Below, piece by piece: positions 14,831-24,523 of a stretch of DNA of 64,000 nt (position 1 is the first letter of the stretch; every line of letters starts with the position of its first letter). The position numbers and the translations under genes were made by a program. The stretch comes from an uncultured Lachnospiraceae bacterium. Lineage in GTDB: Bacteria > Bacillota > Clostridia > Lachnospirales > Lachnospiraceae. The notes under the pieces were generated by a model. That model searched no databases, was not told where the DNA came from, and saw only the letters and a program-made list of their open reading frames with translations. The stretch is from assembly GCA_902778165.1 (NCBI GenBank), contig CACYWQ010000004.1, positions 1-64,000 of the forward strand, read 5' to 3'.

Positions 14831-15187
14831 ATGGCAAGGATAATGCTCTGTGATGATGCGTTGTTTATGCGCTCAGCTATCAGAAAGATGGTAGAAGATG
14901 CCAAACATACCGTGGTTGCCGAGGTCGGAAACGGTATAGAGGCTATCGAGACATACAATATGGTTAAACCGGATATTGTGCTTATGGATATCACAATGCC
15001 GGATATGGACGGAATAGAAGCTACCAAGAGAATCATTGATGCAGATCCGGATGCCAAGATTATCATTGTTTCGGCAATGGGACAGATGGAGATGGTTATC
15101 AAGGCCATAACCGCGGGAGCCAAGGACTTCGTCGTTAAGCCGATAGAAGGTGATAAGCTTCAGTTCTGTATTCGTAAATATATGTAG
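14831..15187 (+). CDS. CheY-like single-domain response regulator
   Basis: A 118-residue stand-alone receiver domain. It has Asp8/Asp9, the phosphoacceptor Asp53 in VLMDITMP, Ser81 in place of the usual Thr, and Lys103 in VVKPI. This is the CheY pattern of Firmicutes and Thermotoga. No kinase or chemotaxis gene is adjacent, so the partner is unknown. AGAAAGGA lies about 10 bases before ATG 14831. Two inverted repeats follow the stop directly. Confidence 0.9.
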   Translation: MARIMLCDDALFMRSAIRKMVEDAKHTVVAEVGNGIEAIETYNMVKPDIVLMDITMPDMDGIEATKRIIDADPDAKIIIVSAMGQMEMVIKAITAGAKDFVVKPIEGDKLQFCIRKYM

Positions 15188-15281: not shown

Positions 15282-15317
15282 TATAAATAATTAGCACTCG
15301 CTCTTGACGAGTGCTAA
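15282..15317 (+). promoter_or_regulatory. CIRCE operator (HrcA site) and -10 box of htpG
   Basis: TTAGCACTC, a 9-base spacer and GAGTGCTAA (15291-15317) match the CIRCE consensus in all 18 conserved positions. A TATAAA box (15282-15287) lies directly upstream, so transcription would start inside the operator, the usual arrangement for HrcA-repressed chaperone genes. No good -35 box is visible. By known CIRCE function, htpG should be repressed by HrcA and induced by heat. Confidence 0.92.
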
Positions 15318-17477: not shown

Positions 17478-17520
17478 AAGCCGACGTAAGATAATAAAGG
17501 CAATTTTACGTCGGCTTTTT
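17478..17520 (+). terminator. Terminator of htpG
   Basis: A 12-bp stem (AAGCCGACGTAA 17478-17489 / TTACGTCGGCTT 17506-17517) with a 16-base A-rich loop is followed by a T-rich run. Confidence 0.9.
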
Positions 17521-17612: not shown

Positions 17613-20600
17613 ATGAGTGAGCATACTTCGAAAAGGGGAAGGGCGCAGGGCAATCTGACCTTCTCGGAATCCAAAATCGAATTGACACTTAAACAGGGTG
17701 AGTTGCATGAGGGATATTTCACCATAGAATGTCCCGAGAGCAATACCATGGAAGGATATGTATATTCTTCCTCTGTTCGTATGCAGACCGAAGTCAGGTT
17801 TATAAGCGGAGCAAGTGTAGCCGTGCCTTATGAGTTTGATAGCGCCGGAATGGAACAGGGCGATGTCTTAAAAGGCAGTTTCATGATAGTGAGCAATATG
17901 GGCGAGTATATTCTTCCCTTTGTTGTTCAGATCAGTCATGATACCATTGAATCTTCTCTGGGAAGTATTCGTAATCTGTTTCACTTCACCAACCTGGCCA
18001 AAAGTGACTGGGAAGAAGCGGTGAGAGTATTCTATAATCCCGGATTTATAGATATAATGACGGGCTCGGATGCGTCATATCGTAATCTTTATATGGGCCT
18101 GACGGCCTGTGGCAACAAAAACCACAATCTTGAAGAATTCTTAATAGGAATCAATAAAAAGAAGATAATAGAGTATTCGCTGTCAGATGAAAACATAAGG
18201 ATAAGCGACATATACGAGGATGTTACGCAGACGCTTAAGATAGTGAAAGACGGTTGGGGATACGTACTGCTTGGAGCCAAAGCGGAAGGTGATTTCATTA
18301 ATCTGCCCGGAAACAGGATTAAGTCCGATGATTTTGCAGGTAATGAATGTGTATTTGAATTCAGAATAGATGCGTCCAAACTTCACGAAGGAAACAATTT
18401 CGGAAGAATAGTATTTAAGCATCTATACGGGCAATTTGCCGTGGATATTACGGTAAGCAATACAACAAGAAGCAGAAGGACCGGAGCGCTTCACAGGTTA
18501 AAGACTGCTAAGTGCTCGCTTGTCAGATACTATCTTGATTACAGAATGGATCTGATAAGCAAGAATAAATGGGTTCAACTTACGGAAGAGATAGTTTCAC
18601 ACAGAGTAAGTATAGACAGTGATGATATAGAGAATGCTTTATATGAGACATATCTTCTGTTAAAGCAAGAGCGATTCAATGAGGCAAAGTGGATCCTTGA
18701 CAGACAGATATCACCTGTTATTGAAGATGAAGAAGATGAACTATATTGCTTCTATCTCTATCTGATGGCTTTGTACAATGTTGATAATTTCTATACTGCG
18801 GAAATCGGGGCCAGAGTAGGCTCTATATATGATAAGAATCCCGAGAACTGGCGTGTGGGTTGGGTGTTGCTTAAGACGCTGGATGAATTTAAGCGCAATC
18901 CGACCAGGAAGTATGCGTTTGCAATCAAGATGCTTGCCCTGGGATGCAACAGTCCGCTTATTTATATCGAGATAGTTAAGATGCTGCATAAGATGCCGTC
19001 TTTGTTAATGCATTTTGACAGAGAGGAATTAAGGGTATTAAGTTTTGCAGCCAAGAATCGACTGATAAGCGTGGAGCTAAGAGAACAGATCGCTTATCAG
19101 GCATTAAAGACCAAGGAATATGATCCTGAGATTGTAAGAATACTCAAAGCCCTCTATGACAGTAACCCGACTGACGATGTGCTACAGGCCATGTGTGCTC
19201 AGCTTATAAGAGGCGACAAGACGGGTGAGAAATATTATGACATATATGCGCAGGGAGTAAAGAGAGGGTTCGGAATCACAAGGTTATACGAGAGCTATCT
19301 TATGAGTGTCGGAGACAGAACCGATATAGAGATTCCTCGCGAAGCCTTGATGTATTTTACATACGACAATGACTTGTCATATAAACAGAAGGCATATCTC
19401 TATGCATATATATTTAAGCATAAAGAGGCCAATCCGGACATTTATATTGAATACAGGGCGGACATAGAAAGATTTGTGCTTAAGCAGTTATATGCCGGCA
19501 GGCTTAACAGAGATCTTGCTTATCTTTATCTTGAACTTGTATTAAAGGAGATGCCCACAGAGGATAATATATGCCAGTTTGCGAGTCTTATGCTTACGCA
19601 TCTTATACGTGTGGAAGATCCGCAGATAGTATCGGTTGTCGTGATGGATGAAAGGCTTAAGCAGGAGAGTATATACCAGGTCTCTTCGGGCAAGGCCCTG
19701 GTGATTCTTCCAAGCAGTGACTATACGGTGCTTTTGGAGGATTCGTTAGGCAACAGATATTACGGCACCAAGGAATATATTACCGAGAGATTCTTCCTTC
19801 CAAGGAAGTTAATGCCCATAATAGAACCATATGCCAAGGACAGCTTGTTTCTTGATCTGTTCATCTGTGAAGGAAATAAAGAATTCATAGTTATTACCGA
19901 GAGAAATCACGAGAGGTATCAGTATCTTGAATTAAGCGAGGAAGTGGATGAGAGATTTAAGGCAGCCATAAGACTTCCGCTTATTCAGTATTACAGAGAT
20001 GCGGATGATACGGCTATGCTTGACGGCCTGCTTGAAAGAATAGACAGAGATGATGTTCCGTACAAGGACAGAGATGAATTAATAAGGCTATTAATAGCAA
20101 GAGGATTTACAGACAGAGCATATGAATATGTCTTGTATTACGGCCCTGAGAGCATTGATCCGCAGGTGTTGGTAAGATTGTCAACAATGATAATAGACAA
20201 AGACGGCCTTATTGAGGATGATAACTTAACGGCCATAATAGTCAGTGCTTTTGACAGAGGTAAATACAACGAGACAGGACTGTTGTATTTAACGAAGTTT
20301 TACAAGGGCCCGGCCAAGAACCTTCGAAATATCTGGAAAGCGGCTTCGGGATTCTATGTGGATACATACAGTATCTGCGAGAGAATGATCGAACAGATGC
20401 TTATTACCGGTGCATATATCGGACAGGAAGCACAAGTTCTTAAGGAATACGTTGAAGGCGGAGCCAAGACGGGACTTGAACTTGAATATCTTACATATTT
20501 TGCCGACGAATACCTGTTAGGGGACCGGATTATGGATGAATACTTCTTTAAGGAGATGGCAAGGATATACGAGAATGAGCACGATCTCCCCAAGGTATGT

Positions 20601-21161
20601 ATGTTGGCGTTTCTTAAATACTATGCGCAGAATGCCAAGCCTTCGGATATAAAGGATAATATGGCTGAGCACATAAGAAGATATATTAAGACGTTATATA
20701 TTGATGACGGAGTCGTAATGCCGTTTATGCAGGCATTTGCCTCTATTTCGGTTGAGGCTGAACAGATAAGCAAATTGACAATTGTAGAGTACAGGGGACA
20801 ACCGGATTCAAGAGTTACGATCAATTACTTCATAAGCAGTGAGAACAGTGAGAATTACGGATATACAAGAGATGAACTGCATGAGGTATACGGCGGAATA
20901 TATACGGGAAGTTATCTGTTGTTCTTCGGAGATGCCCTGCAGTATTACGTGACCGAATCCAAAGACGGAATGGAGGAACTTACACAGAGCGGTACCGCAA
21001 CCAGAAATGATGTGGACTCGCTTGGAGGAAATGATAAGTTTACTCTGATTAACGATATATCCATGGCATCGACACTTAAAGATTATGATACTGCTTACAG
21101 GCTTATTGAAGAATATAAGCAGAAGGAATACATGACAGATCGCCTGTTTGTTGCACAATAA
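17613..21161 (+). CDS. Giant beta-sandwich/helical-repeat protein (DUF5717-like)
   Basis: A 1182-residue protein without signal peptide or obvious membrane helix. From memory it resembles the DUF5717 family of Lachnospiraceae; this is unverified. Two Ig-like beta regions occupy about 15-130 and 205-305, the second ending VFKHLYGQFAVDITVSN. About 310-1080 is mostly alpha-helical with TPR-like pairs (for example YETYLLLKQERFNEAKWIL), interrupted by a beta-rich island near 690-790. A last beta region (TIVEYRGQPDSRVTINYF) is near 1050-1130. ATG 17613 has AAGGAT six bases upstream. It heads a four-gene unit in which the second gene resembles Hsp70. No catalytic motif is visible; a scaffold or client-binding role is a guess. 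Confidence 0.75.
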   Translation: MSEHTSKRGRAQGNLTFSESKIELTLKQGELHEGYFTIECPESNTMEGYVYSSSVRMQTEVRFISGASVAVPYEFDSAGMEQGDVLKGSFMIVSNMGEYILPFVVQISHDTIESSLGSIRNLFHFTNLAKSDWEEAVRVFYNPGFIDIMTGSDASYRNLYMGLTACGNKNHNLEEFLIGINKKKIIEYSLSDENIRISDIYEDVTQTLKIVKDGWGYVLLGAKAEGDFINLPGNRIKSDDFAGNECVFEFRIDASKLHEGNNFGRIVFKHLYGQFAVDITVSNTTRSRRTGALHRLKTAKCSLVRYYLDYRMDLISKNKWVQLTEEIVSHRVSIDSDDIENALYETYLLLKQERFNEAKWILDRQISPVIEDEEDELYCFYLYLMALYNVDNFYTAEIGARVGSIYDKNPENWRVGWVLLKTLDEFKRNPTRKYAFAIKMLALGCNSPLIYIEIVKMLHKMPSLLMHFDREELRVLSFAAKNRLISVELREQIAYQALKTKEYDPEIVRILKALYDSNPTDDVLQAMCAQLIRGDKTGEKYYDIYAQGVKRGFGITRLYESYLMSVGDRTDIEIPREALMYFTYDNDLSYKQKAYLYAYIFKHKEANPDIYIEYRADIERFVLKQLYAGRLNRDLAYLYLELVLKEMPTEDNICQFASLMLTHLIRVEDPQIVSVVVMDERLKQESIYQVSSGKALVILPSSDYTVLLEDSLGNRYYGTKEYITERFFLPRKLMPIIEPYAKDSLFLDLFICEGNKEFIVITERNHERYQYLELSEEVDERFKAAIRLPLIQYYRDADDTAMLDGLLERIDRDDVPYKDRDELIRLLIARGFTDRAYEYVLYYGPESIDPQVLVRLSTMIIDKDGLIEDDNLTAIIVSAFDRGKYNETGLLYLTKFYKGPAKNLRNIWKAASGFYVDTYSICERMIEQMLITGAYIGQEAQVLKEYVEGGAKTGLELEYLTYFADEYLLGDRIMDEYFFKEMARIYENEHDLPKVCMLAFLKYYAQNAKPSDIKDNMAEHIRRYIKTLYIDDGVVMPFMQAFASISVEAEQISKLTIVEYRGQPDSRVTINYFISSENSENYGYTRDELHEVYGGIYTGSYLLFFGDALQYYVTESKDGMEELTQSGTATRNDVDSLGGNDKFTLINDISMASTLKDYDTAYRLIEEYKQKEYMTDRLFVAQ

Positions 21162-21195
21162 CAATTAGGATAAGCATACACGGGAACAGAAAGAA

Positions 21196-22476
21196 ATGTT
21201 TGAATTTAACAAATCCGTTATAGTTGGTTATGACTTATCAAATGAATATTCTCAGATCAGTTACTATACTGCCGGAGATGAGCTTGCCAAGACAATAAGC
21301 TTAAAAGACGGAGAGGAGCAGTATTGCAATCCTTTATGCCTGTTTAAGCGAAGTGAGGTTAACCAATGGTATGTCGGTACGGACGCACTGGCATACAAAG
21401 AGGTTGAAGAGGGAGAACTTGTATGGCAGTTATGGGACAGGGCTCTTATCGGTGAACCGGTAACGGTAGTGGGTGAGCAGTTTGATCCCCTTGCGTTATT
21501 GACATTGTATATCAGGCGCACGTTAAATTCACTGACCAATTTGGTCAACAAGAATGACATAGTCGGAATAATGTTCACAATACCCGAACTAACGGTAAGG
21601 GCAATTGAGGTGTTAGAAGTTGTTACTTCTTCGATTGATTTTAAATCTGCCAAGATAAGCTTCATGGGCAGGGAAGAAAGTATATTTAATTATATGATCA
21701 ATCAGCCGGAAGAGTTATGGAAGCATGATGTTGTTGTTTATGATTATAACGACGGAAAGATCAACTGCTATAATTTCAGGCTTAACAGAATAACCAGGCC
21801 TGTGGTCAGCTTCGTTGATAAGCAGGAATATAAGCTTAATAAAGAATATACGGATGATGAAAAAGACAATAAATTCTTAGATATAGTTCATGAGACGGTG
21901 GACGGCCATATCGTCAGTTGCGCTTATCTTTTGGGCGACGGATTTACCGGAGACTGGTGCAGGGATTCCCTTAAGGAACTGTGTCGAAACAGAAGATCGT
22001 TCAGAGGTAATAACCTATACAGCAGAGGTGCCTGCTATGCAATGCAGGATAGGGTTAAGGGCGTTAAAAACGAGAACAGAAAGATAGTGTTCTTAGGAAG
22101 TGATAAGCTTAAGGCCAATGTGGGAATGAGTGTTATAAGAGGCAGGGAAGAGTCTTATTTTGCCCTTTTGGACGGCGGAGAGAATTGGTTTGATTCCAAG
22201 AAAAGCGTCGATGTAATACTTGATAAGGGCAACAGTTTCACGGTAACAATAACGCCTCTTGACGGCAGAGGAGTAAGGCATATAGAGATTGTCTTAGACG
22301 GACTTAAGGAACATGAACCTAAGACGGTCAGGTTAAGGATAGAAGTTTTGATGGAATCCGAAGATGTTATGAGACTGAATGTAACCGACCTCGGATTCGG
22401 GGATTTCTTCCCGGCATCCAATCAGTTGTTCACACGAACAATCTCACTTACGGTAACGGGAGGTGAGTCGGAATGA
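21196..22476 (+). CDS. Hsp70/actin-fold protein (DUF5716-like)
   Basis: A 426-residue protein. The order of elements follows an Hsp70: a phosphate-1-like VIVGYDLSNEYSQISYY (8-24), FTIPELTVRAIEVL (127-140) at the place of the Hsp70 TVPAYF segment, DVVVYDYNDGKINCYNF (178-194) where phosphate-2 (DLGGGT) should be, LLGDGFTGDWCRDSLKEL (245-262) resembling the adenosine loop, and YSRGACYAM (275-283) resembling the ARGAA segment. Residues ~310-420 look like a beta sandwich, comparable to the Hsp70 substrate domain. Phosphate-2 is degenerate, so ATP hydrolysis may be weak or lost. From memory it matches DUF5716; unverified. It starts 34 bases after the giant gene and overlaps the next gene by ATGA. 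Confidence 0.75.
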   Translation: MFEFNKSVIVGYDLSNEYSQISYYTAGDELAKTISLKDGEEQYCNPLCLFKRSEVNQWYVGTDALAYKEVEEGELVWQLWDRALIGEPVTVVGEQFDPLALLTLYIRRTLNSLTNLVNKNDIVGIMFTIPELTVRAIEVLEVVTSSIDFKSAKISFMGREESIFNYMINQPEELWKHDVVVYDYNDGKINCYNFRLNRITRPVVSFVDKQEYKLNKEYTDDEKDNKFLDIVHETVDGHIVSCAYLLGDGFTGDWCRDSLKELCRNRRSFRGNNLYSRGACYAMQDRVKGVKNENRKIVFLGSDKLKANVGMSVIRGREESYFALLDGGENWFDSKKSVDVILDKGNSFTVTITPLDGRGVRHIEIVLDGLKEHEPKTVRLRIEVLMESEDVMRLNVTDLGFGDFFPASNQLFTRTISLTVTGGESE

Positions 22477-23318
22477 GCAATGTGATTCTGTGCAAGGGCG
22501 AGTATTCAAAGACTCCGTATCTGCTTAAAGGTGACTGTAAGAATGTGTATTGTATAGAGGAATTATGCTATTACCTGTATCACAATGCTTATTTGCTAAG
22601 CGATGATTTCGTTGATTTTGCTTTAGCTGATTGGATAGGTGACAGCCTAGGACTCACAGATTTGGGAAGAGAGATCAACAAGATATGTAAGAAGACCAAT
22701 GCCCTTGCCAAACTGATTGAACTTTTGGCAGAACATATCGGATTCTACAGTGACAAAGAATGGAAAGAATTGCTTGACTGTATAGTCAAGAACAATGAAT
22801 TGTCGGTGAATGAAAGACGTAAGATCCGTGCGGACGGATTCCTAAATGCGGGCAAATACGGTCTTGCAATGGATGAATACGAAGTGGTGATATCCAAAGC
22901 CATGGCCGGAGAAGACAAATTAAGGGCTAAGGCATTCCATAACCTGGGTGTATGCGCGGCCAAACTGTTTATGTACGAGAAGGCGGCACAGTATTTTGCC
23001 AAGGCGTATGAGGCATTTGCCAATACGGAGAGCTATATCTCCATGCTAAGTGCCATGAAATTATATATGCCTTCAAATGAGTATCTTGAATATTTGTCTT
23101 CACACAAAGAGTCTTATGAGGATTCGCTTGAAGTGGAGCGTAGATTTGAGAGTTATAAGGACGGATTTGCATCACAGCCTGTCGGAAGATATCTTAAAGA
23201 ACTGGCTGATAAGAAATCTACCGACAGTGATTATTATGACGGAATAGAATCATTGACCGAAGAGGTCAAAGAAGAGTACAGAAACCAGATATACAGAGGA
23301 AGAACCGGAGGATATTAA
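22473..23318 (+). CDS. TPR-like protein of the Hsp70-like cluster
   Basis: A 281-residue soluble protein of unknown function. The N-terminal ~110 residues are helical and Cys-containing (ILCKGEYSKTPYLLKGDC). The middle has two TPR-like helix pairs: RKIRADGFLNAGKYGLAMDE at about 117-136, and FHNLGVCAAKLFMYEKAAQY at about 155-174 with a third helix. The C-terminus is charged, ending in a basic YRGRTGG. It overlaps the Hsp70-like gene (ATGA) and is overlapped by one base by the next gene, so all three are almost surely translated together. TPR proteins are common Hsp70/Hsp90 partners, which suits the neighbourhood. Confidence 0.72.
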   Translation: MSNVILCKGEYSKTPYLLKGDCKNVYCIEELCYYLYHNAYLLSDDFVDFALADWIGDSLGLTDLGREINKICKKTNALAKLIELLAEHIGFYSDKEWKELLDCIVKNNELSVNERRKIRADGFLNAGKYGLAMDEYEVVISKAMAGEDKLRAKAFHNLGVCAAKLFMYEKAAQYFAKAYEAFANTESYISMLSAMKLYMPSNEYLEYLSSHKESYEDSLEVERRFESYKDGFASQPVGRYLKELADKKSTDSDYYDGIESLTEEVKEEYRNQIYRGRTGGY

Positions 23319-24523
23319 TGGGCTTTGGAGGAAAGATATTATCCAGACTCTTCGGAACGGAAGATGATGATTTCTCGGCACTTGAATTGGATGAAGGGCT
23401 TGAGGAAGAATTCGAATGGGACTGGGACCACATAGTGGAAGAACGCCATCTGTTTAAGATGAGCGATGAAGTCCAGAGAGATAAGTATATCAGAAGCCTT
23501 GTTGAGCAGATTAAGGATGCATCCGTAGAACTTGAGAAACTATCGGCTGAGTATAATCTCGTAACTGCGATGCTTAAGGACATGGATGAGATAGATGCAC
23601 TTCCTGCCAGTGAGAAACTCTCACTTCAGGATGCGGCCAGAAATATCTTATATTATGAGGATGAGGCAAGAGATTACGAGGCAAAGAGAAGCGCCATGAC
23701 TGAAGCTCAGTTTCGAAGTATGGAGCGCTTCGAAGACAGTATGCCTAAAGCTTATGAAGATATGGAAGAGGCTGAGAGGTATAAGGGCCTTATTAAGGAT
23801 GATCTTCGTAAATTAGAGGGTGAGAAGCATGCATATTTATACAGACAGGATGAATTAAAAACAGAGATCGGCAACCTTCGGGGGATGACGATAATATGCG
23901 TATTTGCGGCTGTTCTGTGTGTAATAATGCTTTTGGTGTTGCAGTTCGGATTCAATATGGATACGGGAATCGGATATATATTTACCTGCTTAACTGCAGC
24001 GGTTGTGATTACTCTGTTATATGTCAGATATCTTGATTCAACCAAGGAACTTAAGAGGATCGAGAAGGGAATCAACAGGCTGATTCTGCTGCAGAACACG
24101 GTTAAGATAAGGTATGTTAATAATACCAATCTTTTGGACTATCTCTATACCAAGTACAATACAAAGAATGCCAAGGAACTTAAGAAAGTGTGGGAGATGT
24201 ATGAACTTGAAAGAGATGAAAGAGAACGAGCCAAGTTAAATGAGAAGGAACTGACCTTCTACCAGGCAGAACTGTTACATAAACTTCGCAAATATCAACT
24301 TAACGATGTATATGCATGGCTTCATAATCCCCTTGCAATCATAGAACATAATGAGATGGTCGAGCTCAGACATGCGCATATTTTACAGCGTCAGAAGCTG
24401 CGAGCCAGAATGGATTATAACAAAAGAATCGCCAAGGACGGACAGAACGAACTTAAAGAATTTGTACGTCAGTATCCCGAATATGCGGGGGAAGCTCTGA
24501 ATATGGTGGAGAGATATTCGTAA
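23318..24523 (+). CDS. Coiled-coil membrane protein of the Hsp70-like cluster
   Basis: A 401-residue protein with an acidic N-terminus (EDDDFSALELDEGLEEEFEW), a long heptad-rich region (about 50-188), two membrane helices (about 190-210 and 217-236) joined by a short hairpin, and a second long charged coiled coil (about 238-401). Both long arms therefore face the same side, presumably the cytoplasm. I recognise no catalytic motif. As last gene of the unit, it could anchor the soluble partners at the membrane (inference). It ends about 5 bases before the promoter of the amino acid transporter. Confidence 0.72.
   Translation: MGFGGKILSRLFGTEDDDFSALELDEGLEEEFEWDWDHIVEERHLFKMSDEVQRDKYIRSLVEQIKDASVELEKLSAEYNLVTAMLKDMDEIDALPASEKLSLQDAARNILYYEDEARDYEAKRSAMTEAQFRSMERFEDSMPKAYEDMEEAERYKGLIKDDLRKLEGEKHAYLYRQDELKTEIGNLRGMTIICVFAAVLCVIMLLVLQFGFNMDTGIGYIFTCLTAAVVITLLYVRYLDSTKELKRIEKGINRLILLQNTVKIRYVNNTNLLDYLYTKYNTKNAKELKKVWEMYELERDERERAKLNEKELTFYQAELLHKLRKYQLNDVYAWLHNPLAIIEHNEMVELRHAHILQRQKLRARMDYNKRIAKDGQNELKEFVRQYPEYAGEALNMVERYS

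What the first reader, a model, noticed from the sequence alone, without database searches (positions are those of the whole stretch)
17613..24523. Four-gene unit built around an Hsp70-like protein: candidate undescribed folding or assembly system
Four genes spaced or overlapped by -4 to +34 bases encode a 1182-residue beta-sandwich plus helical-repeat protein, an Hsp70/actin-fold protein with a C-terminal beta sandwich, a TPR-like protein and a two-helix membrane coiled-coil protein. There is no DnaJ or GrpE. The unit follows htpG. The combination of a scaffold, an Hsp70-like core, a TPR adaptor and a membrane anchor suggests one complex at the cytoplasmic face. I know related DUF5716/DUF5717 names from memory only; no function is known to me.
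Basis: partly seen in the sequence, partly recalled or inferred. Interest (0 to 1): 0.82.

Follow-up and report, generated by a model that had tools for sequence, protein, structure and literature searches.

The report
Chaperone-derived complex with dead Hsp70
A four-gene unit found in nearly all examined members of one bacterial family carries a crippled relative of the protein-folding chaperone Hsp70, and it looks like the stripped-down descendant of a larger, apparently undescribed machine with four Hsp70s and its own nucleotide-exchange factor.

Summary
The four genes are real, and the second protein has an Hsp70 fold. It is probably not a working Hsp70: its ATPase motifs are degenerate, the nucleotide-exchange lobe IIB is deleted, and it has no lid. 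DUF5716 occurs in 59 of 60 genomes of the window's family. In 53 loci examined, the A scaffold adjoins it in 50, the TPR protein adjoins or is fused in 52, and the membrane protein follows in 32. Related families of the order carry a larger operon: A, Hsp70-1, a coiled-coil protein ending in GrpE, a pseudo-Hsp70, Hsp70-3, Hsp70-vWA, TPR, sometimes the membrane protein. The window's protein branches with that pseudo-Hsp70. Its family therefore appears to have lost three probable ATPases, the GrpE and lobe IIB, keeping the pseudo-Hsp70 core. Best reading: an ATPase-free client-binding or assembly complex, membrane-tethered where D is present. Adjacency to htpG is confined to one genus, with a terminator between. 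My searches of an open-access library showed no description of it. Function is inferred, not shown.

The parts
17613..21161 (+). A: DUF5717 scaffold, 1182 aa
   Evidence: Pfam PF18984 and PF18983; adjacent to B in 50 of 53 family loci
17676..17933 (+). A residues 22-107: N-terminal beta-sandwich
   Evidence: AlphaFold model, strands 22-107
18474..19592 (+). A residues 288-660: first helical solenoid
   Evidence: AlphaFold model; Foldseek hits are TPR/HAT-type scaffolds (complexes of Ctr9, Ski2-3-8, IFT-A, Naa15) with TM-scores below 0.25
19596..19766 (+). A residues 662-718: middle beta domain
   Evidence: AlphaFold model
19842..20768 (+). A residues 744-1052: second helical solenoid
   Evidence: AlphaFold model
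20775..21002 (+). A residues 1055-1130: C-terminal beta-sandwich
   Evidence: AlphaFold model
21196..22476 (+). B: DUF5716, pseudo-Hsp70, 426 aa
   Evidence: PF18980; hhalign to an Hsp70 profile, probability 99.6, 399 columns; AlphaFold and Foldseek
21832..21855 (+). B residues 213-220: place where NBD lobe IIB is missing
   Evidence: Strand 204-213 runs almost straight into helix 220-235 in the model; phosphate-2 to adenosine spacing 59-78 in 53 family rows against 134-152 in 18 B2 rows and 143 in DnaK
22120..22446 (+). B residues 309-417: SBD-beta-like sandwich, no lid after it
   Evidence: hhalign covers SBD-beta and stops before the lid; strands 309-417
22473..23318 (+). C: TPR-like protein, 281 aa
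   Evidence: Weak TPR matches; same profile and position as the TPR protein of the large operon; fused to B in one genome
23318..24523 (+). D: coiled-coil protein with a two-segment membrane hairpin, 401 aa, optional member
   Evidence: Downstream of C in 32 of 53 loci; also found in some copies of the large operon
23885..24025 (+). D membrane hairpin (about residues 190-236)
   Evidence: Hydropathy peaks at residues 199 and 227
17478..17517 (+). Likely intrinsic terminator separating htpG from A
   Evidence: 15-bp hairpin, -20.5 kcal/mol, z -6.0, followed by a T-rich run

Best explanation
The unit encodes a stable complex built around a pseudo-Hsp70 (B/DUF5716), held on a large scaffold of beta-sandwiches and helical solenoids (A/DUF5717), with a TPR protein (C) bound to B and, in about 60% of the examined family loci, a membrane-anchored coiled-coil protein (D). 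It descends from a dedicated Hsp70 machine that related families still carry: A, Hsp70-1, a coiled-coil protein with a C-terminal GrpE domain, the pseudo-Hsp70, Hsp70-3, Hsp70-4 fused to a vWA domain, C, and sometimes D. SHOWN by sequence and models: the fold, the conserved gene order, the kinship with the operon's pseudo-Hsp70, the loss of ATPase residues and of lobe IIB, and the absence of the three putatively active Hsp70s and the GrpE from the operon in the window's family. INFERRED: the complex binds client or partner segments through its SBD-beta-like sandwich and the solenoids without an ATP cycle, and so acts as a holding, assembly or recruitment platform, membrane-tethered where D is present. 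In the larger machine the same pseudo-Hsp70 would act as a non-catalytic partner of the active Hsp70s, as Ssz1 does for Ssb.
For: Fold. Degenerate ATPase: K70, E171, the GGGT loop and other contacts are kept in B1, B3 and B4 but lost in B2 and in the family's B. In named genomes the P1, K70 and phosphate-2 patterns are each met in 0 of 50 B2, against 35-36 of 36 B1, 35-36 of 36 B3 and 24-27 of 27 B4. IIB loss. A 2015 review states that all NEFs target IIB (PMC4753570, passages), so losing IIB fits losing the operon's GrpE: X-type GrpE in 0 of 60 family genomes and 17 of 38 genomes of other families. Operon order: 19 of 53 named loci show all seven genes in order; the rest are partial; no labelled gene lies on the opposite strand. 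Kinship: nine sampled family rows and eight outer B2 rows form one side of a 100/100 branch, and all 53 family rows form one branch with the B2 of f4 and f22 nearest. Physical link: a B-C fusion in one genome (154 bits with a C profile that leaves that row out; best of 200 shuffles 6.3; window C alone E 8.9e-15). Constraint: dN 0.16-0.17 with dS above 2.5 for B.
Against: No client, phenotype or expression data were available. Binding by SBD-beta is assumed; the groove was not tested. Nucleotide binding without hydrolysis is not excluded: the first aspartate is kept in 85% of family rows, and residues near the old adenosine site (G247, F250, W254) are strongly conserved. The membrane link is weak: D was not found in 21 of 53 loci, three of which (L063, L064, L098) have under 1.2 kb left after C. 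A does not flank B in 3 of 53 (one a contig end) and C is missing in one (L096). The supposedly active Hsp70s of the large operon also lack the canonical hydrophobic linker in the sequences printed, and B1 and B3 lack the lid region, so their ATP-coupled cycle is itself inferred from NBD motifs only. The A model is moderate (pLDDT 71, pTM 0.40).
Confidence: 0.55

Rival explanations
1. B is a regulatory co-chaperone of the cell's ordinary DnaK: A-B-C-D recruits DnaK, with its normal DnaJ and GrpE, to a site in the cell, as RAC (Ssz1-Zuo1) does for Ssb. The complex then works through borrowed ATPase activity.
For: RAC/Ssz1 structures are among the top Foldseek hits (6sr6_C rank 9, E 2.4e-18). 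Ssz1 binds but does not hydrolyse ATP and lacks the lid (PMC7083937, passages). DnaK is present in the window's genome and in 16 of 16 other family genomes searched.
Against: No J-domain match in the unit, in the L037 operon or in eight genes flanking the operon in L122. No evidence here of contact with DnaK or the ribosome.
Confidence: 0.25
2. B is still an ATP-driven Hsp70 that uses the general DnaJ and GrpE.
For: First phosphate-loop aspartate kept in 85% of rows; NBD without IIB plus SBD-beta present.
Against: K70, E171 and GGGT equivalents lost; IIB, reported as the target of all NEFs, deleted in 53 of 53 rows; no lid.
Confidence: 0.08
3. The unit is a conflict or anti-phage system related to the GAP1-N2 GTPase systems that carry Hsp70, GrpE and TPR or FNIII proteins.
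For: Kaur et al. 2020 describe neighbourhoods in firmicutes and actinobacteria with HSP70, GrpE, sometimes a second HSP70 without a peptide-binding domain, and an FNIII protein fused to DnaJ or TPR (PMC7159879, section 29). The Hsp70-vWA and TPR proteins of the large operon weakly match the candidate-defence models PDC-M61B (E 1.7e-6) and PDC-M71B (E 2e-9).
Against: No GTPase or GAP1 family among the matches listed for the nine L037 operon proteins or for A-D; no PADLOC match at E<=0.01 for A, B, C, D, X or B2 (Hsp70-1, Hsp70-3 and the L037 A were not scanned); 59 of 60 family genomes carry DUF5716, normally as one copy; no plasmid match for A and no relative of B or X in pattern-limited IMG/VR scans.
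Confidence: 0.06
4. The unit is a client or co-chaperone module of HtpG (Hsp90).
For: htpG directly precedes A in 10 of 16 same-genus loci, and an HSP90 match is present in 17 of 17 family genomes searched. TPR proteins are Hsp90 partners in eukaryotes (recalled).
Against: 0 of 37 other family loci have htpG directly before A (eight of them could not show it); a strong terminator separates them in the window; the only CIRCE element found in the window lies upstream of htpG.
Confidence: 0.06

Closest known systems
Pfam DUF5717 (PF18984, PF18983) and DUF5716_C (PF18980)
   Same: A and B match over the curated cut-offs.
   Different: The families are of unknown function; their link to Hsp70 and to a four-Hsp70 operon did not appear in my library searches.
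Yeast ribosome-associated complex, Ssz1 (atypical Hsp70) with Zuo1
   Same: Hsp70 with SBD-beta but no lid and no ATP hydrolysis, acting beside an active Hsp70 (PMC7083937, passages).
   Different: No J-protein found in or beside the operon; the window's B also lacks lobe IIB; A, C and D have no RAC counterpart known to me; special kinship with Ssz1 was not tested.
DnaK-DnaJ-GrpE system
   Same: The relatives' operon has Hsp70s with intact NBD motifs and a GrpE domain.
   Different: Three putative ATPases plus one degenerate Hsp70 in one operon, GrpE fused to a long coiled-coil region, one Hsp70 fused to vWA, no linked J-protein found, no lid in Hsp70-1 and -3; the window version lacks the active parts.
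GAP1-N2 GTPase-centred systems with HSP70 and GrpE (Kaur et al. 2020, PMC7159879)
   Same: Gene neighbourhoods with HSP70, GrpE, a second reduced HSP70 and a repeat protein with TPR (section 29 read).
   Different: No GTPase or GAP1 match here; a different degenerate Hsp70 (ours keeps SBD-beta); nearly universal, normally single-copy genes in the window's family.
Cyanobacterial DnaK1/DnaJ3 system of type IV pili (PMC9239167, passages)
   Same: A second, dedicated Hsp70 system serving one membrane-associated process.
   Different: Active DnaK with a J-protein; no scaffold or pseudo-Hsp70 in the passages seen.

Membership tests
DUF5717 / DUF5716 | Match over curated cut-off | tested here: met
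   910.8 and 293.2 bits against 25; 316.6 against 34.7
Hsp70 superfamily (fold and homology) | Actin-like NBD followed by SBD-beta | tested here: met
   hhalign 99.6% over 399 columns; 48 of the 50 listed Foldseek hits are titled as Hsp70, Hsp110, BiP, mortalin or RAC, the other 2 are chains of a ciliary central pair not named in the listing; best E 2.8e-19
Hsp70 (Pfam PF00012) | Direct match to the HSP70 profile | tested here: not met
   No PF00012 match of B at E<=1; not among the PF00012 places of the genome
Hsp70 chaperone (active) | Conserved ATPase residues | tested here: not met
   K70, E171, GGGT positions degenerate in 53 family rows; first aspartate kept in 85%
Hsp70 chaperone (active) | NBD lobe IIB (NEF site) | tested here: not met
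   Spacing 59-78 against 143 in DnaK
Hsp70 chaperone (active) | SBD-alpha lid | tested here: not met
   Alignment and model end after SBD-beta
RAC / Ssz1 | J-domain partner | tested here: not met
   None in the unit, in the L037 operon or among eight flanking genes in L122; elsewhere in the genomes not searched
RAC / Ssz1 | Ribosome association | not testable with these tools
   Needs biochemistry
DnaK-DnaJ-GrpE system (relatives' operon) | Dedicated GrpE | tested here: met
   17 of 17 X proteins match PF01025, all over the curated cut-off
DnaK-DnaJ-GrpE system (relatives' operon) | Linked DnaJ | tested here: not met
   No J-domain match in L037 or in L122 flanks; other loci not scanned for it
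GAP1-N2 conflict system | TRAFAC GTPase and GAP1 proteins | tested here: not met
   No such family among matches listed for nine L037 operon proteins or for P0001-P0004

The most novel reading that the evidence does not exclude
An undescribed bacterial Hsp70 machine with four co-encoded Hsp70 paralogs (three probable ATPases, one constitutive pseudo-Hsp70), a built-in GrpE-coiled-coil exchange factor, an Hsp70-vWA fusion, a TPR protein and a giant scaffold. In one large family it evolved into a core complex that works entirely without ATP, the pseudo-Hsp70 having become a structural or client-binding subunit after losing the lobe through which exchange factors act.
Probability: 0.5. Interest if true: 0.85.

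Novelty: new variant of a known kind. Interest (0 to 1): 0.74.

Why it matters
Pseudo-Hsp70s are rarely recognised in bacteria (recalled). Here one is kept in 59 of 60 genomes of a family, and the comparison with related families suggests how an ATP-driven chaperone operon became an ATP-free one in step with loss of the exchange-factor lobe. It gives DUF5716 and DUF5717 a structural identity and a testable hypothesis, and it exposes a multi-Hsp70 operon with its own GrpE in a named strain (Defluviitalea phaphyphila Alg1) in which its client could be sought.

Tried and rejected
Considered and rejected: (1) Defence system: no PADLOC match for the unit (the large operon's Hsp70-vWA and TPR proteins match candidate-defence models weakly), core distribution, no plasmid match for A, no relative of B or X in pattern-limited IMG/VR scans. 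Five 'Bacteriophage sp.' faecal records match B by protein at 25-31% identity; they were not examined, and bacterial DNA labelled as phage is only my guess. (2) htpG partnership: direct adjacency in one genus only, terminator. (3) Spread through the class: 10 of 291 sampled class genomes have a DUF5717_N match over the cut-off, all in the window's family; an eleventh, weak match (G212) fell in a frame that reads, to my eye, as an HD-domain-like protein with no unit around it. The sample showed none of the operon-bearing outer families, so it does not bound the spread well. (4) Missing Hsp70s moved elsewhere: of 14 extra Hsp70 places in 16 family genomes (MreB-like frames and three weak actin-fold matches in G034 not counted), 11 were put in a tree and fell on the DnaK side, none with B1, B3 or B4; the other 3 (G017, G027, G036) were not fetched. 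(5) Sporulation-only role: no Spo0A match in 3 of 17 family genomes that carry B. (6) valS as a functional neighbour: in 9 of 52 family loci, 4 of 20 outer loci and 2 of 53 named loci; read as ancestral position only. (7) Alignment A6 of the scaffold was discarded because fragments were misplaced; A7 was used.

Caveats on controls: the profiles were iterated on these same loci, so group borders rest on the trees. The C profile used for the B-C fusion contained the fusion itself (225 bits); one search repeated the test without it (154 bits). One search is a quick tree with several long branches; midpoint rooting there puts most outer B2 rows on the other side from the family rows, while the careful tree joins them. 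hhalign E-values are for single comparisons. Several family genomes are incomplete: 7 of 60 show no GrpE at all, so 0 of 60 for X-type GrpE is an upper claim.
Full report
WHAT IS THERE. A (1182 aa) is DUF5717 N plus C, B (426 aa) is DUF5716_C, C (281 aa) shows only weak TPR signals and D (401 aa) has no family over a cut-off. No NCBIfam model reaches its cut-off.

B IS AN HSP70 BY FOLD, PROBABLY NOT BY CHEMISTRY. B has no PF00012 match at E<=1. A profile of 53 orthologs aligned to a profile of the operon Hsp70s plus DnaK gives 99.6% probability over 399 columns, from the first phosphate loop through SBD-beta. The AlphaFold model (47-row alignment, pLDDT 79.3, pTM 0.71) finds DnaK 2v7y first (E 2.8e-19); 48 of the 50 hits listed are titled as Hsp70, Hsp110, BiP, mortalin or RAC, and the other 2 are unnamed chains of a ciliary central pair. 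TM-scores are only 0.43-0.52 by query length, probably because the two domains sit at another angle and IIB is missing. In the family's B the K70, E171 and GGGT positions are degenerate; the first aspartate is kept in 85%. The stretch between the phosphate-2 aspartate and the adenosine motif is 59-78 residues in all 53 family rows, 134-152 in 18 outer B2 rows and 143 in DnaK: a loss of about the size of lobe IIB, with no intermediate in this set. In the model strand 204-213 runs into helix 220-235 with no room for IIB. There is no lid.

THE GENES STAY TOGETHER. DUF5716 is found in 59 of 60 genomes of the window's family and 18 of 38 genomes of other families of the order. I fetched long stretches for 52 of the 58 other family genomes with a match. 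With the window (n = 53), A is adjacent in 50 (misses: L067 at a contig end, L083, L096), C in 51 (misses: L096, and L093, where C is fused to B) and D follows C in 32; three of the 21 without D have under 1.2 kb left after C. In L093 one 713-residue frame holds B (1-423) and C (449-710; 154 bits with a profile that leaves this row out, best of 200 shuffles of the tail 6.3; window C alone E 8.9e-15), which argues for contact between B and C. B evolves under constraint (dN 0.16-0.17, dS above 2.5 and near saturation); dS could not be computed for A, for D and for one of two C comparisons.

THE LARGER OPERON. In other families of the order the neighbourhood is A (usually split in two), Hsp70-1, X, pseudo-Hsp70 (B2), Hsp70-3, Hsp70-4, C, sometimes D; in six of the 20 outer loci (L039-L043, L047) the genes are partly scattered. 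X was found in 17 of the 20 outer loci. It is mostly 500-650 aa (shorter in L035, L048, L051), and its C-terminus is GrpE: 17 of 17 match PF01025. Hsp70-4 carries a vWA domain, with a DTTGS motif in 27 of 27 named copies. One pattern-limited scan of 84,980 species genomes with X gave 53 loci. Their titles name Defluviitalea phaphyphila Alg1, Candidatus Epulonipiscium MAGs and Defluviitaleaceae MAGs, and others given only as Eubacteriaceae, Eubacteriales, Clostridiales, Clostridia or Firmicutes. All seven genes stand in order in 19 of 53; the other 34 are partial, many cut by contig ends; no labelled gene is on the opposite strand. P1, K70 and phosphate-2 patterns are met in nearly all Hsp70-1 (35-36 of 36), Hsp70-3 (35-36 of 36) and Hsp70-4 (24-27 of 27), and each in 0 of 50 B2; the adenosine pattern is met in 2 of 50 B2. 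So B2 was already a pseudo-Hsp70 inside the full operon. Against calling the others standard chaperones: the printed Hsp70-1, -3 and -4 lack the canonical hydrophobic linker, and Hsp70-1 and -3 lack the lid region. G082 is D. phaphyphila (same 262,338-base contig), which places the window in the same order.

REDUCTION IN THE WINDOW'S FAMILY. In the careful tree, nine sampled family rows and eight outer B2 rows form one side of a 100/100 branch, with the B2 of f4 and f22 nearest the family. In the quick tree of all rows the 53 family rows form one branch, again with f4 and f22 nearest, but midpoint rooting leaves the other B2 rows on the far side; long branches make the exact order unsure. The f4 genome still has Hsp70-1, an X shortened to 279 aa, B2 with IIB, Hsp70-3 and Hsp70-4 (split in two frames). 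X-type GrpE is found in 0 of 60 family genomes and 17 of 38 outer ones (seven family genomes, mostly incomplete, show no GrpE at all, and a weak sub-cut-off match in a 431-residue frame of G031 lies 118 kb from its B). Extra Hsp70s of family genomes fall on the DnaK side (11 of 14 places tested). A review states that all NEFs target IIB (PMC4753570, passages), so the joint loss of IIB, GrpE and the active Hsp70s makes mechanical sense. One other genome (G074, f16) shows only A and B together, possibly a separate reduction.

HTPG. htpG directly precedes A (28-172 bases) in 10 of 16 same-genus loci and in 0 of 37 others; 2 of the 37 have it 3.6-3.8 kb upstream, and 8 could not show adjacency for want of sequence or of A. 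HSP90 itself is present in 17 of 17 family genomes searched. A perfect CIRCE element lies upstream of htpG (15291-15317; 0.01 expected), and a 15-bp terminator hairpin follows htpG. The unit is therefore probably transcribed on its own.

THE SCAFFOLD. The A model (26-row alignment, pLDDT 71, pTM 0.40) has a beta-sandwich (22-107), an unreliable stretch (170-294), solenoid (288-660), beta domain (662-718), solenoid (744-1052) and beta-sandwich (1055-1130). Foldseek returns many TPR/HAT-type scaffolds with TM-scores below 0.25 in the list shown, a generic result.

MECHANISM. Shown: anatomy, kinship, losses. Inferred: a constitutive, ATP-free complex in which the SBD-beta-like part and solenoids bind partners or clients, tethered by D where present. 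Ssz1 (lidless, binds but does not hydrolyse ATP; PMC7083937, passages) is the best functional analogue, and recruitment of DnaK is the main rival. No Spo0A match was found in 3 of 17 family genomes that keep B, which argues against a sporulation-only role.

KNOWN OR NEW. A search for DUF5716 and DUF5717 gave one paper (listing seen only; its title concerns mismatch repair and curcuma derivatives). Searches for Hsp70, GrpE and vWA operons gave none or long lists of which I saw the top 10 of 127 and 6 of 3,552; nothing listed describes the unit. Most subscription-journal papers and all preprints are outside the library. The nearest published layout I saw is the HSP70-GrpE theme of GAP1-N2 systems (PMC7159879, section 29); its defining GTPase and GAP1 proteins were not found here.

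Noticed in passing
window 15291-15317: Perfect CIRCE element (HrcA site) upstream of htpG; htpG is likely HrcA-controlled here.
   Followed up: partly
L093:8246-10387: Natural fusion of DUF5716 and the TPR-like protein in one frame of 713 residues.
   Followed up: yes
L122:15158-17233 and 26 further named loci: Hsp70 with a C-terminal vWA domain (Pfam-checked in L037 and L122) and a conserved DTTGS metal-site-like motif; function unknown.
   Followed up: partly
L045 (G074, family f16): Only A and B2 of the operon are seen together; possibly an independent reduction.
   Followed up: no
phage records MT835719, MT835988, MT835486, MT837634, MT837190: Unannotated 'Bacteriophage sp.' faecal records encode DUF5716-like stretches (25-31% identity); perhaps bacterial contigs labelled as phage.
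   Followed up: no
window 14831-15187: Stand-alone CheY-like response regulator (PF00072) just upstream of the CIRCE element and htpG.
   Followed up: no
L037:4676-6355 and orthologs: Hsp70-1 has about 35 extra residues between the phosphate-2 and adenosine motifs (177-182 against 143 in DnaK), in the region of lobe IIB.
   Followed up: no
L035, L037, L044, L053 and nine own-family loci: valS lies near the operon in both outer and own-family loci, suggesting an ancestral chromosomal position.
   Followed up: partly
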